Shown: one piece after another, positions 1,528-59,744 of the stretch
How positions within the stretch are numbered: position 1 is the stretch's first letter
Layout of the letters: each line of letters starts with the position of its first letter
NCBI GenBank assembly: GCA_938003545.1
Contig: CALKXY010000004.1
Location: forward strand, 62,001-126,000
DNA from: an uncultured Caulobacterales bacterium
GTDB lineage: Bacteria; Pseudomonadota; Alphaproteobacteria; Caulobacterales; Maricaulaceae
Length of the DNA: 64,000 nt
Reading direction: 5' to 3'
Notes under the pieces: model-generated
Told to the model about the DNA's origin: nothing
What the model saw: only the letters and a program-made list of their open reading frames with translations
The model's database searches: none
Made by a program: the position numbers and the translations under genes

Positions 1528-1722
1528 GAGTGTGCCTTTCGTGTTGAGGCGATAGCTGTGCGCTGGCCATGAAATTCACAAGCCATTTCGTGTCAGGATA
1601 GGCCATGTTTCGTGTCATGACAGATGGGATATTGGGTCGGGTTTGAAGGTGACGCATTAGGTTTTGAATTAAATCCTTGTTTTGTAAAAATAATAATCTT
1701 TCTACTTCAATGCTATACTATG

Positions 1723-2165
1723 AAAACCAAGAGAATGATCCTTGGTCCCAAAACCTATGATACGGTACACAGGTTCTTTCGGACACGGGACAGGTGAGAC
1801 GTCGCTTGCTGGTATCGGAGGACGGTGGGGTTGAGCGTTTGGCTTTGACAGGCTGGAGTGTGCCGGACCTTTTGCGATGAGAGTTGACCGCTGGGCGTCA
1901 ACCGGGGCCTTGGGATTTACACCCTGAGTGTCTGACCGGTACGCTCAACTGCGGGACCCCCAACCGTTGCATCAAAAACCATTGCCGCGTGGTATGCACA
2001 TGTTGGACTGACATCCCAGCGCGTGCGGTATTTGCGTAAAACAATTTTTCTATTCTGGTATTCCATCGTGAATATCGACCACGCGGACTGTCCCACCTTT
2101 CGGGCATCGCATTAATCGGCAGTCACCCATGTTGAAACCCTAGTTTCAAGGGGGGCTGTGAGCGT
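1723..2165 (-). ncRNA. element E1: putative ~400-nt structured RNA
   Basis: The region holds no convincing gene, and the minus strand is homologous to the plus strand at about 21010-21399 (E2). Plus-strand 1766-1795 is the exact reverse complement of 21325-21354 (30 nt), with many other shared blocks. On the minus strand a long-range helix pairs 2088-2094 with 1787-1793 (GGGACAG/CTGTCCC). A small hairpin at 2059-2074 has a 5-bp stem altered compensatorily in E2. The 3' end is a 6-bp stem (1727-1732 with 1740-1745) followed by T4, like an intrinsic terminator. An extra 7-bp hairpin at 2132-2149 is seen only here. I cannot match it to tmRNA, RNase P RNA, 6S or SRP RNA. Direction and RNA nature are inferred. 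Confidence 0.5.
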
Positions 2166-2190
2166 TGCCCCTTGTTTCAAACACATCTGA

Positions 2191-3312: not shown

Positions 3313-3445
3313 GTTTGTGATGGGGGATGAATTTACGTTTTCATAATAAGAATAACTACCTCAAGTCGTGGATTTGTTATTGCGGTCGAATACTGATTAG
3401 GGTTACCAGTGAGTTAATGGTGCGGTAACTTAGACGGGAATTTTG

Positions 3446-6400
3446 ATGGCAATTAGAGATGGCGACGCAGGCGACAACGTACTTGTAGGCACGAATAGTG
3501 CTGATACGATCAGCGGGTTCGGCGGCAATGATGAACTTTCCGGTCTCGGCGGTAATGACCTACTCTTGGGCGGGGCAGGAAATGATCTGTTGGACGGGGG
3601 CTCCGGCACCAACACGCTTACGGGCGGGACTGGCATCGACACATTTGCAATCTCGGCGAGGCAGAGCCAATTCAACACAATTACCGACTTTGAAGACGGA
3701 ACTGACCTAATTGACTTGAGTGCAATGGGCGTGAGTTCATTTTCGCAGGTGCTTGAATATTTAACGGAGAGTGCTGGCGATACGTATTTCAGGACTGAAT
3801 GGGCTGACTTTAGCTCAGGGGATAATGAAACACTTCGGATAAACAACATCGACATTGGCGACTTATCTGCAGCGGATTTCATTTTCGAAACGACGACGGC
3901 GAGTCAAACGATCAACATTACATCGAGCGGAACCTCTGATGTCTTTGGCGGATTGGGCGATGATGACATTACGGGCAGCACCGGTAATGAGACCATCAAT
4001 GCAGGCGAAGGTAATGACACCATCAATGCGGGCCGAGGGACAAACCTTATCCGTAGTGACATCGGCGCTGATACGATAGAGATTTCCTCGCGCGGAACAC
4101 AATTTACGACAATCGCAGATTTCGAAGATGGCGTCGATATTATCGACATTAGCTCATGGGGTGTGAGTAGCTTCTCGCAACTCTTGCACTACATCACCGA
4201 AAATTCTGGAGACGCGCTCATTTCTACAGAATGGGCCGACTTTAGTTCTGGGGACAATGAACGTCTTCTGCTTCGGGATTTCGATGCCGGCGATCTCTCT
4301 GCTGCGGATTTCATTTTCCGCACAAGTACGTCAGGCCAAACGATAAATGTTACATCTAGCGGAACCTCTGATGTCTTCGGCGGATTGGGCGATGATGATA
4401 TTACGGGCGGCACTGGCAATGAAACGATCAATGCTGGCGAAGGCAATGACACCATCAATGCGGGCCGAGGGACAAACCTAATCCGAAGCGATATCGGCGC
4501 TGACACGATAGAGATTTCCTTCCGGGGCTCACAATCCACAACGATTGCAGATTTTGAAGATGGCGTTGACATTATCGACCTCAGCGACTGGGGTGTCAGC
4601 AGTTTCGATCAGCTTCAGCATTATCTGAGCGAGAGTGCGGGCGACACGACCCTATCTACGGAATGGGCCGACTTTAGCTCTGGTGACAATGAAGAGCTTG
4701 TCTTTGTTGATACAAATTTGAGCGATTTATCTGCGGATGACTTCGTGTTCCGCACAAGCACATTTGCTCAAACCATCAATATTACCTCATCAGGGACTTC
4801 AGACGTATTTGCAGGTAGGGGTGATGACGACATCACTGGCAGCACTGGCAATGAAACGATCAATGCTGGAGAGGGCGATGACATCATCAACGCGGGGCGC
4901 GGTACGAACCTCATCCGTAGCGAAGATGGTTCTGACACAATTGAGATTTCATTCCGGGGTGCCCAGTCAACGACGATCGCAGATTTTGTATCAGGCGAAG
5001 ATATCATTGATTTGAGCGATTGGTTCATCGGCAGCTTTGACCAGCTGTTACCATTCCTGAGCGAAAGCAATGGAGATGTTCTTATCTCAACACAGTGGCA
5101 AAATTTCAGTTCCAATTTTAATGAAACATTGACGATTGAAAACACGACTATCAGTGCATTGAGCGCGGCTGATTTCGACTTTAACAGCAGCACCTCAGGG
5201 CGAACGCTTTCGAATTCCTCCAGCGGCAGAACTACGCTTTTTGGCGGCCTTGGCGATGACGAAATTACCGGTGGATCCGGACGGACCACGATCAGTGGTG
5301 GTGATGGCGACGACGTTATGAATGGCGGCCGTGGCAATGATGTTCTCATTGGCGGAGTTGGATCTGACGAAGCCTTTGGCGGTGACGATAATGATTTGAT
5401 TCTGTTTCAAAACGCGTCGGAACTTTCTGTCGGTAATGAAATTATCGATGGCGGTGATGATTTTGATCGGATCGAAGTTTCTGGCGCGGATGATAATTAT
5501 GATCTTCGCGGCTCGACGATTGCCTCAATTGAGGGCTTGACCATAAGTGAAGCGGACGCGCTCGTGCAGATCAATGCGATACAAGTCGGCGGTGGTGGTC
5601 TCGACGACGCGCTTGCGGTTGTTGGGGACGCTGCGGTTGGAACTGTGCAATCCATTGAAGTCTTCATGGCTTCTGACTCGAACCTCGATATATCAGGCTG
5701 GACGTTCAGTGAATGGAACGCGGAAGATACAATTGATATCATCGGCGATAGCAGTGCTGAAACAATTATCGGTTCCTCCGTCAGCGATACAATCAATAGT
5801 TCGGATGGCGCTGATACTGTTGAAGGCGGCGCTGGTAATGACCTTTTACGCGGCGGCGCAGGCAATGATGATCTTGACGGCGGTGCAGATTCGGATCGCC
5901 TAGAAGGCGGCACAGGTAATGATACGCTCTTTGGCGGAACGGGCGGCGACATTCTCGTCGGTGGTTCAGGCAATGATACACTCGATGGATGGACGGGCTT
6001 TGATACCGTTCTTTACACGGGGTTATCGACGGGTGTGACGGTCGATTTGGCGCTCACGACGGCGCAAAACACAGTTGGTGCCGGTATTGATACGCTTGTT
6101 CGTATCGAGAACCTTATTGCCTCTGGTCAAAATGATACGCTCTTGGGCACATCTAACCGTAACCGCGTAGAGGGCGGCGCAGGTGATGACACTATTGATG
6201 GTCGCGGCGGAAATGACACGCTGCTTGGCGGTAGCGGGAATGATGTACTGACGGGCGGTACGGGTGCAGACCGTCTTATTGGCGGTACTGGGAATGACGA
6301 CTTGTTTGGTGGAACTGAGCGTGATCGCTTGGAGGGCGGCTCTGGAAATGACGACCTCTTTGGCGGTGACGGTGTTGATCGTCTGCTCGGCGGCGACGGC

Positions 6401-6778
6401 AATGATTTGCTCGTGGGCGGCGAAGGCACAGACTTCCTCTTTGGCGGTGCAGGCGCAGATCGTTTTGATTATAATTCAGTAGATGATTCGAATGTCGGGC
6501 CTTTTAACCGTGATGAAATCAGGGACTTTAACTCTGCTGAAGGCGACAAAATTGATGTCTTGGGCATTGACGCTGACATAAATATTGCAGGCAATCAGGC
6601 GTTTAATCTGATCAACGGTAGCTTCACAGGAACCGCAGGTGAAATCATGATCCAAAGCCTCGTGCGTTCCGGCGTGGATGTTCAACTCGTCAGTTTTGAC
6701 GTGGACGGCGACGCTAGGGCTGACATGCAGCTTTGGGTCCTCACCAGTGAATTAGATGCAGACGACTTCGTGCTATAA
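3446..6778 (+). CDS. RTX-type calcium-binding repeat protein, probably secreted by type I secretion
   Basis: A 1110-residue, strongly acidic protein without an N-terminal signal peptide. GG-x-G-x-D-type nonapeptides occur at about residues 20-60, 592-650 and 770-1010, the hallmark of hemolysin-type beta-rolls that fold on Ca2+ outside the cell. Between them lies a modular array: units of exactly 144 residues (154-297, 298-441, 442-585) preceded by a diverged first copy, each with short GG-type repeats followed by a TTIADFEDG-like strand and a WADFSSGDNE motif. The last ~100 residues resemble the serralysin C-terminal region and end in DADDFVL, compatible with an uncleaved type I signal. No protease, lipase or ABC exporter gene is adjacent. 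The role may be adhesion or S-layer-like; that is inference. Confidence 0.85.
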   Translation: MAIRDGDAGDNVLVGTNSADTISGFGGNDELSGLGGNDLLLGGAGNDLLDGGSGTNTLTGGTGIDTFAISARQSQFNTITDFEDGTDLIDLSAMGVSSFSQVLEYLTESAGDTYFRTEWADFSSGDNETLRINNIDIGDLSAADFIFETTTASQTINITSSGTSDVFGGLGDDDITGSTGNETINAGEGNDTINAGRGTNLIRSDIGADTIEISSRGTQFTTIADFEDGVDIIDISSWGVSSFSQLLHYITENSGDALISTEWADFSSGDNERLLLRDFDAGDLSAADFIFRTSTSGQTINVTSSGTSDVFGGLGDDDITGGTGNETINAGEGNDTINAGRGTNLIRSDIGADTIEISFRGSQSTTIADFEDGVDIIDLSDWGVSSFDQLQHYLSESAGDTTLSTEWADFSSGDNEELVFVDTNLSDLSADDFVFRTSTFAQTINITSSGTSDVFAGRGDDDITGSTGNETINAGEGDDIINAGRGTNLIRSEDGSDTIEISFRGAQSTTIADFVSGEDIIDLSDWFIGSFDQLLPFLSESNGDVLISTQWQNFSSNFNETLTIENTTISALSAADFDFNSSTSGRTLSNSSSGRTTLFGGLGDDEITGGSGRTTISGGDGDDVMNGGRGNDVLIGGVGSDEAFGGDDNDLILFQNASELSVGNEIIDGGDDFDRIEVSGADDNYDLRGSTIASIEGLTISEADALVQINAIQVGGGGLDDALAVVGDAAVGTVQSIEVFMASDSNLDISGWTFSEWNAEDTIDIIGDSSAETIIGSSVSDTINSSDGADTVEGGAGNDLLRGGAGNDDLDGGADSDRLEGGTGNDTLFGGTGGDILVGGSGNDTLDGWTGFDTVLYTGLSTGVTVDLALTTAQNTVGAGIDTLVRIENLIASGQNDTLLGTSNRNRVEGGAGDDTIDGRGGNDTLLGGSGNDVLTGGTGADRLIGGTGNDDLFGGTERDRLEGGSGNDDLFGGDGVDRLLGGDGNDLLVGGEGTDFLFGGAGADRFDYNSVDDSNVGPFNRDEIRDFNSAEGDKIDVLGIDADINIAGNQAFNLINGSFTGTAGEIMIQSLVRSGVDVQLVSFDVDGDARADMQLWVLTSELDADDFVL
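3905..5200 (+). repeat. three in-frame tandem 432-bp repeat units within the RTX gene
   Basis: Corresponding bases recur at 3905, 4337, 4769 and 5201, a period of exactly 432 bp (144 codons). Units 1 and 2 are nearly identical over their first halves; unit 3 is more diverged, and the sequence before 3905 holds the distal half of an older copy. The pattern indicates internal duplication of a protein module with period kept in frame. Confidence 0.85.
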
Positions 6779-6862: not shown

Positions 6863-6949
6863 AGGACGGGAAGGGATTCGAACCCCCGAAGGACTTGCAT
6901 CCTTACTGGATTTCGAATCCAGCGCTTTCAACCGCTCAGCCACCCGTCC
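6863..6949 (-). tRNA. tRNA-Ser (anticodon CGA)
   Basis: Read on the minus strand: 7-bp acceptor GGACGGG/CCCGTCC, D arm beginning TGGCTGAGCGGTTGAA, anticodon stem CTGGA/TCCAG enclosing loop TTCGAAA (anticodon CGA, codon UCG), a long variable arm (AAGGAT...GTCCTT) typical of class II tRNAs, and a T arm with GTTCGAATC. The base after the acceptor is T and the following bases are not a complete CCA, so the CCA end must be added enzymatically. Confidence 0.93.
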
Positions 6950-20022: not shown

Positions 20023-20952
20023 CTACGCGCGAGGGTGAGCGCCCGCGTGAATGTCGATGAGTCGAGCCGCATCAACATCGGTATAACGTTGCGTTGTTGA
20101 AAGGCTTTCATGCCCTAAAAGCTGTTGAATGGTACGTAAATTCCCGCCGCCTGCTAATAAATGCGTCGCGAAACTATGACGTAGAGCATGGGGCGTTGCT
20201 GTTTCGGGCAGGCCTAAGGCGCTACGCAATCGCCGGACTTCGGCTTGAATGATTTCAGGCCTTAACACGCCGCCGCGCGCGCCGCGAAAAATGGGTGCGT
20301 CAGGACCGAGTTGATACGGCGTTAGGCGCATATATTCAGCCACAGCTTCGGCAACGATGGGCAAAATCGGGACGAGGCGCGTTTTCCCGCCTTTACCCGT
20401 GAGCATGATTTGCCGCGCTAAAGGGACATCTCTTCCTGTTAAAGATAAGGCTTCGGCGATACGTAGGCCCGCACCGTAACATAGGGCTAACACCGCTTGA
20501 TTTCGTGCGGAAATCCATGGATCGCCAGGGCTGTTCAGGGGTTTATTTACGATCTTCAAGGCTTCGGCGGCGCTCACGGCTTTGGGAAGTGGACGTTTGA
20601 CACGTGGCCCGCGGATCAGCGGTAGGGCCGCATTAGGCGCATCCCAACGACGTTCAATATATCGATAAAATGTACGAACCGCTGATAAATGTCTTTGAAT
20701 GGAGGCGGCAGATAAGGGTTGATTTCCACGTCGTCGTTGCGCCAAATAGGCTCGAAATCCACGTGCCTCAACGCCAATAATATCAGGTAATGTAATGTCT
20801 GTTTCTAAATAACCTGCGAGAAATCCCAAATATTCAGAGATATCACTCTGATAGGCTTCGCAGGTTTTTTCAGCTAAACGTCGTTCACCGCGTAGGTGAT
20901 CAATGAAGAGGTTTAAGACCTCGAGGGCCGGAATTTTCTGCAAGGCAAGCAT
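20023..20952 (-). CDS. xerC: tyrosine recombinase XerC
   Basis: Site-specific recombinase that resolves chromosome dimers at dif together with XerD. The 309-residue protein has the SAM-like core-binding domain (residues ~10-105) and the catalytic domain with Arg164 (GAGLRIAEAL), Lys187 (TGKGGKTR), His255 and Arg258 (TPHALRHSFATHLL), His281 and nucleophile Tyr290 (GHESLSTTQRYT). All six residues are present, so it should be active. It reads as XerC rather than a phage integrase because of its compact length and ARQ/MLTGKGGK motif. The RNA-like element E2 begins about 60 bp from its 5' end on the other strand. Confidence 0.92.
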   Translation of the reverse strand: MLALQKIPALEVLNLFIDHLRGERRLAEKTCEAYQSDISEYLGFLAGYLETDITLPDIIGVEARGFRAYLAQRRRGNQPLSAASIQRHLSAVRTFYRYIERRWDAPNAALPLIRGPRVKRPLPKAVSAAEALKIVNKPLNSPGDPWISARNQAVLALCYGAGLRIAEALSLTGRDVPLARQIMLTGKGGKTRLVPILPIVAEAVAEYMRLTPYQLGPDAPIFRGARGGVLRPEIIQAEVRRLRSALGLPETATPHALRHSFATHLLAGGGNLRTIQQLLGHESLSTTQRYTDVDAARLIDIHAGAHPRA

Positions 20953-21009
20953 AGGAACATCGTGTCGGATTACGGTTAAGATTAAGTATCACGCAGGCAA
21001 AAACGTCTG

Positions 21010-21399
21010 CAGCCCCATATCAATTAAGTGGGAAACTGCCGAATAATGGGATGCCCGATTAAGTGGGACAGTCCGCGTGGTGGTCTTCGCGATGGAGGAC
21101 CAAAATAGAAAAGTTGTTTTACGCAAAGACCGCACGCGCTGGGATGTAAGTCCAACACATGCATACCACGCGGCAGCGGTTTTTGACGAAGCGGCCTGTT
21201 TGTCCCTGCAGTTAGGCCATTAGACCAAGCAGTCGGCTCTCACTCCAAAAGGTCCGGCACACGTCTGGCTCTCACACCAAACCGCTCAACCCCACCGTCT
21301 CTCGGTACCAGAAGGTGAGCTCCTACCTGTCCCGTGTCCGAAAGAACCTGTGTATCGTATCACAGCTTTTGGACCCGAGGATCATTCTCTTGGATTTTT
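21010..21399 (+). ncRNA. element E2: second copy of the putative structured RNA
   Basis: Plus-strand homologue of the minus strand of E1. Seen: CCGCGTGG (21073-21080) pairs with CCACGCGG (21166-21173) enclosing a hairpin 21084-21099 whose stem TCTTC/GAGGA replaces TATTC/GAATA of E1 (A-U to C-G, and U-A to U-G) while its loop is nearly unchanged. A long-range GGGACAG/CTGTCCC helix links 21065-21071 with 21327-21333. The 3' end is a 6-bp stem (21375-21380 with 21388-21393) followed by ATTTTT, like a terminator. The frame that is open in E1 contains stops here, so it is not coding. Transcription and boundaries are inferred. Confidence 0.5.
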
Positions 21400-21520
21400 C
21401 TGTAAGGTGTTGAAAACTATAGATTTTTCATTTTCCGAACCGAGGATGCAGTTTGAAACGCTTGGAAGTCACGAAAAAGTGTGTATGGGAAGAGCAATTG
21501 TATTAAATTGGGAGATTGAA

Positions 21521-59646: not shown

Positions 59647-59744
59647 GAGCAATGGTGACTGAGTTTGGTTGAAGGTGGGCGGCTTCCGCAAGGTCCGCTC
59701 CTTAGGGGGAACCCGAGCGCAGGTTCGAATCCTGTCCATTGCTC
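59647..59744 (+). pseudogene. tRNA-like relic (class II tRNA shape)
   Basis: GAGCAATGG (59647-59655) pairs over 9 bp with CCATTGCTC (59736-59744); a T arm GCAGG-TTCGAAT-CCTGT adjoins it; a D-arm-like TGACTGAG...GGTTGAAGG and a variable-arm-like GGG-GGAA-CCC are present, as in tRNA-Ser. The anticodon arm is not canonical: no 5-bp stem with a 7-base loop can be drawn; GGGCGG/CCGCTC would leave a 12-base loop. It is therefore listed as a pseudo-tRNA, perhaps created by insertion or recombination at a tRNA site. Confidence 0.5.

What the first reader, a model, noticed from the sequence alone, without database searches (positions are those of the whole stretch)
1723..2165. A ~400-nt conserved, apparently non-coding structured element (E1) with a diverged second copy (E2)
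E1 (minus strand) and E2 (plus strand 21010-21399) share a 30-nt exact block and many others, a long-range GGGACAG/CTGTCCC helix, a CCGCGTGG/CCACGCGG helix and a terminator-like 3' hairpin. One hairpin stem changes from TATTC/GAATA to TCTTC/GAGGA, a compensatory pair change plus a wobble, while its loop stays nearly fixed. The frame open in E1 is broken in E2. This is what a large structured RNA looks like; I cannot place it in a known class (tmRNA, RNase P, 6S, SRP considered).
Basis: partly seen in the sequence, partly recalled or inferred. Interest (0 to 1): 0.8.

Follow-up and report, generated by a model that had tools for sequence, protein, structure and literature searches.

The report
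Dispersed structured RNA repeat family
The two sequences belong to a family of roughly 450-letter structured RNA elements, not found in the RNA catalogue we searched, scattered in dozens of copies through genomes of some marine bacteria; copies keep their places between species yet resemble one another most within a genome.

Summary
E1 and E2 are two of about 44 dispersed copies in this genome. The family is multi-copy in Litorimonas and found in four other genera of its bacterial family. No Rfam family matches. Covariation shows a structured RNA on the strand opposite to the one stated: E1 on +, E2 on -. The 'terminator hairpin' lies at the RNA's 5' side in a promoter-like block and is confined to this genome. 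The 5' hairpin's apex is palindromic in 106 of 106 copies, with about ten different sequences, suggesting kissing-loop dimers. Many places are shared between species, orientation kept, yet in none of 21 chosen pairs is the copy at the shared place the best match: concerted evolution. Modules recombine; one site is empty in a relative. Best reading: a dispersed, non-autonomous element whose only product is a structured RNA, homogenised by recombination. Transcription, mobiliser and function are unproven.

The parts
1665..2175 (+).
   Evidence: (shared extent among copies)
1672..1683 (+). upstream box AATCCTTGTTTT
   Evidence: a TCC box of this type in 84 of 102 copies at -115..-75 from the anchor (no shuffle made for this box)
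   Evidence: 95 of 102 copies have such a box at -50..-20, shuffled 13%
1754..1763 (+). CCTATGATAC, -10-like (CTRTG core)
   Evidence: 87 of 102 copies, shuffled 3%
1773..1823 (+). domain A: 5' hairpin, 16 pairs with covariation
1787..1793 (+). GGGACAG, bulged inside domain A, 5' half of the long-range pseudoknot
1798..1803 (+). apical palindrome GACGTC (putative kissing loop)
1823..1869 (+). middle stem with a variable arm (GGTTGAGCG..TGCCGGACC)
   Evidence: 19 own-genome copies (WC 88, GU 36, AC 2; inner arm WC 91, GU 35, AC 0)
1985..1992 (+). CCGCGTGG, 5' side of the domain B closing helix
1994..2027 (+). variable, exchangeable hairpin of domain B
2034..2043 (+). conserved GCGTAAAACA
   Evidence: 22 distinct versions: WC 99, GU 38, AC 7, other 10
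2079..2086 (+). CCACGCGG, 3' side of the domain B closing helix
2088..2094 (+). CTGTCCC, 3' half of the pseudoknot
2118..2163 (+). 3' domain with the GTTGAAAC..GTTTCAA hairpin
21005..21450 (-). E2, whole unit, ends set by eye; RNA strand is -
21297..21347 (-). E2 domain A hairpin
21327..21333 (-). E2 GGGACAG, pseudoknot 5' half
21317..21322 (-). E2 apical palindrome GAGCTC (differs from E1's GACGTC)
21251..21297 (-). E2 middle stem
21073..21173 (-). E2 domain B, CCGCGTGG (21166-21173) to CCACGCGG (21073-21080), with GGTCTTTGCGTAAAACA at 21115-21131 and hairpin 21082-21101
21065..21071 (-). E2 CTGTCCC, pseudoknot 3' half
21375..21386 (-). E2 promoter-like box AATGATCCTCGG

Best explanation
E1 and E2 are two of about 44 copies of a dispersed, non-autonomous genetic element whose only product is a structured RNA of about 400 nt, read from window + at E1 and window - at E2. 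Shown by computation: many intergenic copies; selection on RNA secondary structure with a long-range pairing; insertion places shared between species; presence or absence of the unit at one place; recombination of modules; greater likeness within genomes than between them at shared places. Inferred: each copy carries its own promoter; the RNA pairs with itself or sister copies through the palindromic apical loop; copies are kept alike by gene conversion; the RNA acts in trans (or serves the element's own upkeep) and not on the neighbouring gene. How new places are entered is unknown; no reverse transcriptase or Y1 transposase was found in the complete relative G013.
For: Copies. RNA-level selection: the RNA strand folds lower in 80 of 91 copies; consensus energies -58.7, -38.2, -37.9 against -23.9, -18.1, -14.3; 98.1% of cells paired, 161 G-U cells against 13 unpaired ones; 33 double changes against 7.1 shuffled; 136 against 30.2; long-range pairing. 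Orientation indifferent to genes: same direction in 56 of 92 on the RNA's 3' side, 55 of 101 on its 5' side (simple ORF calls). Shared places: 23 of 31 G013 copies have a concordant flank in G008, 10 both flanks, 1 discordant. Concerted evolution: mean scores within genomes 167, 110, 96 against 92, 88, 78 between; the copy at the shared place is best in 0 of 21 pairs. Empty site: G002 at the E2 place, occupied in G000, G008, G013, G012. Modules: two modules with two states each occur in all four combinations in each of three genomes; a swapped domain B in G003. No RVT_1 or Y1_Tnp in the 100%-complete G013 with at least 34 copies.
Against: No transcript data. Exact ends are not defined; no terminal inverted repeats or target-site duplications were recognised by eye, and no dedicated search was made. 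With G-U forbidden in folding, the strand bias is small: pooled GU 24/AC 9 on the RNA strand, 12/23 on the other, with nearly equal energies. The pseudoknot count rests mostly on an invariant core: shuffles already pair 60.2 of 64, and copies were chosen by having GTCC. Some residual likeness at shared places exists: in 5 of 21 pairs only 2 to 4 other cross-genome pairs score as high. Rare module combinations rest on one copy each in G000 and G013. Five of 16 element-bearing genomes do hold a reverse transcriptase. G000 and G008 are draft assemblies, and joins at repeats can be wrong.
Confidence: 0.68

Rival explanations
1. DNA-level repeat (MITE, REP or BOX/ERIC-like) whose hairpins matter as DNA, for example for a transposase or nucleoid protein; no RNA function.
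For: High copy number, intergenic, orientation-indifferent; palindromic apex; modular anatomy.
Against: G-U over A-C asymmetry on one strand and better folding of that strand in 80 of 91 copies; conserved promoter-like block at one end; Y1 transposase found in only 1 of 22 genomes; no inverted-repeat ends seen by eye.
Confidence: 0.15
2. Host-beneficial multicopy RNA gene family (such as a dosage-amplified regulatory or scaffold RNA) and not a selfish element; gene conversion keeps copies functional.
For: Places kept between species, structure kept, many neighbours are ordinary housekeeping families such as Ldh_1 (window), enolase, TypA/BipA, ribonucleotide reductase small chain.
Against: No match in 6 of 18 genus genomes, G001, G006, G007, G011, G014, G017, by blastn or by model (with filters that lose weak matches); copy number varies from a few to more than 40; presence/absence at a site.
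Confidence: 0.25
3. Cis-regulatory 5' leader (riboswitch- or attenuator-like) of the following gene, as at the malate/lactate dehydrogenase-family gene and the tyrosine-recombinase gene of the window.
For: At E1 and E2 the RNA runs towards those genes.
Against: Next gene in the same direction in only 56 of 92 cases; the 28 of 30 scanned neighbours with a Pfam family show no common function.
Confidence: 0.04
4. Degraded protein gene or transposon remnant.
For: Repeated, mosaic copies; one frame open over 330 nt in 18 of 96 copies.
Against: 78 of 96 copies have no open frame; compensatory changes; no room for a cargo gene in the 82 copies whose two domains lie within 307 nt (the rest were not resolved).
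Confidence: 0.02

Closest known systems
HEARO / IscB omega-RNA elements (recalled)
   Same: Large structured RNA, many dispersed copies in a genome, some without a protein gene (recalled).
   Different: No HEARO hit in any Rfam search made (that HEARO is in Rfam is recalled); no HNH-type nuclease among the 28 of 30 scanned G013 neighbours with a Pfam family.
BOX, ERIC and REP/BIME repeats (recalled; PMC12306157 on REP seen as search listing only)
   Same: Short intergenic repeats, modular, many copies.
   Different: About 450 nt, strand-specific RNA covariation with a long-range pairing; a Y1 transposase (RAYT-type partner, recalled) in only 1 of 22 genomes.
GOLLD, ROOL and OLE large ornate RNAs (PMC12286853, search listing with start of abstract)
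   Same: Large structured bacterial RNAs; those form homo-oligomers, and a palindromic apical loop here suggests self-pairing.
   Different: No Rfam match; here tens of dispersed copies with concerted evolution.
Mobile/repeat sequence candidates such as MRSC-65-2 (PMC11109978, three passages read)
   Same: Covarying motif, dozens of copies, orientation inconsistent with neighbouring genes.
   Different: MRSC-65-2 is a single long stem from diverse phyla, sometimes near a transposase gene; this is multi-domain and, in the genomes searched, confined to one bacterial family.

Membership tests
Any Rfam 15 family | covariance-model score above the curated cut-off | tested here: not met
   gathering, window and 20 own-genome loci; 17 further own loci not scanned; relaxed E-value
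HEARO / omega-RNA | matches the HEARO covariance model | tested here: not met
   no such hit (that HEARO is in Rfam is recalled)
REP/RAYT or IS200/IS605-derived elements | Y1 transposase (PF01797) in the host genome | tested here: not met
   1 of 22 genomes (G123); none in G000, G008, G013
Group II intron, retron or other RT-dependent element | reverse transcriptase (PF00078) in the host genome | tested here: not met
   absent from 11 of 16 element-bearing genomes, the 100%-complete G013 and G115 among them; present in 5 of 16 (G008, G010, G015, G016, G123) and in 2 of 6 element-free ones
Classical MITE | terminal inverted repeats and target-site duplication | tested here: inconclusive
   ends inspected by eye; none recognised, but exact ends are not defined
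Structured non-coding RNA | covariation beyond shuffled and slid controls | tested here: met
Structured non-coding RNA | transcript of the stated strand | not testable with these tools
   only promoter-like sequence seen
Cis-regulatory leader | consistent position and orientation before a gene of one function | tested here: not met
Homo-oligomeric RNA (GOLLD/ROOL-like) | RNA forms defined oligomers | not testable with these tools
   only the conserved palindromic loop
Phage- or plasmid-borne element | present in phage, plasmid or viral collections | tested here: not met
   Searches (18-mer exact in viral contigs; blastn of E1 in phages and plasmids): no match

The most novel reading that the evidence does not exclude
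A new kind of selfish or domesticated genetic element that encodes nothing but a self-dimerising RNA. Dozens of copies per genome keep their chromosomal addresses over species-level time while rewriting each other's sequence by recombination. The RNA's self-complementary apical loop, changed repeatedly but always palindromic, would be the device by which copies recognise their own kind.
Probability: 0.25. Interest if true: 0.92.

Novelty: new variant of a known kind. Interest (0 to 1): 0.78.

Why it matters
It adds a large, covariation-supported RNA family absent from Rfam 15, with about 40 natural variants in a single genome whose helices are exchanged as modules: an unusually rich natural experiment in RNA structure. 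It also offers a bacterial case of concerted evolution of dispersed RNA loci, and poses directly testable questions: is the RNA made, does it dimerise through the palindromic loop, and what moves or homogenises the copies in genomes without a detected reverse transcriptase or Y1 transposase.

Tried and rejected
Rfam at relaxed thresholds: nothing for E1; a 21-nt chance-level hit for E2; in 20 loci of distant relatives a sub-threshold cspA hit and a weak miRNA hit, neither overlapping the element as far as coordinates show. RNAalifold on the 77-row mixed alignment A2 gave only 9 pairs, 3 with double changes, because length variants misalign it; replaced by the cleaner A3. Cargo-gene search between the two domains: 85 of 108 copies gave a domain B hit, 82 within 307 nt and three over 1 kb away that I judged chance; 23 gave none, some of them cut by contig ends or with other domain B versions, so cargo is excluded only for the 82. 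Phages, plasmids and viral contigs: no match. Reverse transcriptase and Y1 transposase as partners: not supported. Leader hypothesis: rejected on orientation. A longer pairing of the sequence before TAAAACA with the 3' arm of the domain B hairpin (WC 394, GU 102, AC 13, other 51 over 56 distinct versions, 83 copies) competes with the local hairpin and is left open. A DnaA-box or named sigma-factor reading of the upstream boxes was considered from memory and not adopted.

Rows dropped or chosen: A3 uses 44 of 59 distinct extracted hairpins (left out: the six 64-nt versions, two truncated extractions and seven others), and 17 copies did not fit the extraction. A2 uses 77 of 105. A4 comes from 50 sources that I chose. 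The pseudoknot count uses the 64 copies in which GTCC followed a recognisable closing helix. The 21 shared-place pairs were picked by me, most with both flanks matching, some with one strong flank only. Pfam was run on 30 of 62 G013 neighbours.

Full report
Observation. Rfam has no match at gathering thresholds (for 20 own-genome loci; the window's two hits are tRNAs) and none worth keeping at relaxed ones. Many copies lie at contig ends, as expected of repeats.

Host and distribution. An 18-mer scan of named genomes gave 28 stretches: 12 in Litorimonas cladophorae KCTC 23968, 10 in two Caulobacterales MAGs, and 6 in unrelated organisms, where the element itself did not match by blastn. Three L. 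cladophorae contig lengths equal those of G013; five lengths of one MAG equal those of G008. NCBI places the genus in Robiginitomaculaceae, Maricaulales. The 20-mer is found 8 to 44 times in ten of 18 genus genomes. A covariance model of the 5' hairpin (R1) finds matches in 24 of 137 family genomes, 12 in the genus and 12 in four other genera; closer scans gave for example 24 in G059 and 9 in G117 at E<=0.01. A second model (R2) found matches in 19 of 398 sampled genomes of the order, all in the same family. Candidates scored per genome were capped and filters strict in both large searches, so copy counts are lower bounds and weak matches may be lost. Six genus members (G001, G006, G007, G011, G014, G017) have none by R1 or by blastn.

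Strand. So E1's RNA is on + and E2's on -.

Structure. Domain A: a hairpin of 16 pairs at window 1773-1823. On 44 distinct copies 98.1% of cells pair, with 33 double-changed cells against 7.1 in shuffles (0 of 500 as high), 5 pairs with double changes against 2.9 (9 of 500), and slid controls pair at 43-55%. On 46 distinct copies that include distant genera, 14 of 16 pairs show double changes, 136 cells against 30.2 (this alignment was fitted to the model). Its bulged GGGACAG can pair with CTGTCCC after domain B: 63 of 64 copies pair at the variable position, including AGGAC with GTCCT (4 copies); shuffles give 60.2 on average and 12 of 2000 reach 63, so the support within the genus is modest. 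Distant copies read by eye show for example TGGAC with GTCCA and GGGGC with GCCCC. Domain B is closed by CCGCGTGG/CCACGCGG, holds an exchangeable hairpin, a conserved GCGTAAAACA and a second hairpin. Upstream lies a conserved promoter-like block: a TCC box at -50..-20 in 95 of 102 copies and CTRTG at -30..-5 in 87 of 102, against 13% and 3% in shuffles. That it is a promoter is inference.

Palindromic apex. At the apex of domain A (centre within three positions) all 106 copies examined in three genomes have a palindrome of at least 4 nt and 85 one of at least 6 nt, with different sequences: GAGCTC, GACGTC, GGCC-type, AGCGCT, TGATCA, GTATAC, GGCGCC-type and others. Over a 30-nt segment, 76% of 59 distinct versions hold a palindrome of 6 nt or more against 36% in shuffles. 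In the wider set, 38 of 49 do against a shuffled mean of 11.0 and maximum of 19 of 49, adding AACGCGTT and GCGCGC. A hairpin arm closing on itself accounts for part of this, but keeping self-complementarity while the letters change suggests that the loop pairs with the same loop of another molecule; that is inference.

Place and sequence. Of 31 G013 copies, 23 have at least one flank matching the same side of a G008 copy in the same orientation, 10 have both, and 1 is discordant; for G000 against G013 it is 20 of 36, 3 with both, none discordant (19 of the 36 have both flanks held). The E1 place, before a malate/lactate dehydrogenase-family gene, also holds a copy in G013 and G012 by R2, and pieces cut by contig ends in G008 and G002 by blastn; the other 11 loci fetched show none. 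The E2 place, between a tyrosine-recombinase gene (Phage_integrase family, XerD-like by recall) and a small gene that looks like a lipoprotein (by eye; one search gives only a sub-threshold match), is occupied in G000, G008, G013 and G012 but empty in G002, where both genes flank a 176-bp gap. Yet copies at the same place are not especially alike: in 21 pairs that I chose, the copy at the shared place is the best cross-genome match in none, and mean similarity within genomes (167, 110, 96) exceeds that between genomes (92, 88, 78). Two modules with two states each occur in all four combinations in each of three genomes, the rarest once, and in G003 otherwise near-identical copies differ by a swapped domain B. 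This is concerted evolution, most simply by recombination between copies. Some flanks suggest exchange between copies (one flank of G000 L033 matches G013 L121, the other L137), but misassembly of drafts cannot be excluded.

Context. Next genes run with the RNA in 56 of 92 cases on its 3' side and 55 of 101 on its 5' side (simple ORF calls). Of 30 scanned neighbours in G013 (of 62), 28 have a Pfam family; they are mixed, without a common function and without a transposase. Reverse transcriptases occur in 7 of 22 genomes, 5 of 16 with and 2 of 6 without the element, and Y1 transposase in 1 of 22.

Verdict. The element is a structured, high-copy, RNA-type repeat family that is absent from Rfam 15 and was not found described in the paper searches made (listings, and three passages of PMC11109978). 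Its product, mobility and role remain to be shown by experiment.

Noticed in passing
L027, L030, L033, L036, L051, L052, L054 beyond the element's upstream end: A second dispersed repeat with a palindrome (CCATCCCAGCGCAGGCTGGGATCCAG type) follows several copies at about the same distance.
   Followed up: no
window 3443-6778 (+): Large open frame of 1111 aa with RTX calcium-binding nonapeptide repeats (HemolysinCabind, E 1e-70) and a Peptidase_M10_C match.
   Followed up: partly
window 6863-6949 (-) and 59649-59743 (+): Two tRNA genes.
   Followed up: no
window 20023-20952 (-): Tyrosine-recombinase (Phage_integrase family) gene directly beside E2; the neighbourhood is kept in three relatives with the element and in G002 without it, so no link to mobility was seen.
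   Followed up: partly
L051:5920-6170 (-): A short form that keeps the outer modules but has a different, shorter middle.
   Followed up: partly
G004 copies: Seven of the eight anchors found share one private version (CGTCCCGTGACCAAAAGAAC), a striking within-genome homogenisation.
   Followed up: partly
G000 L033 against G013 L121/L137; G000 L028 against G013 L109/L131: Flanks look exchanged between copies, as if chromosomal rearrangements had used the elements; draft assemblies, so uncertain.
   Followed up: partly
L189:683-1126 (-): Sub-threshold cspA thermoregulator match (38.5 bits, cut-off 78) just beyond an element copy.
   Followed up: no
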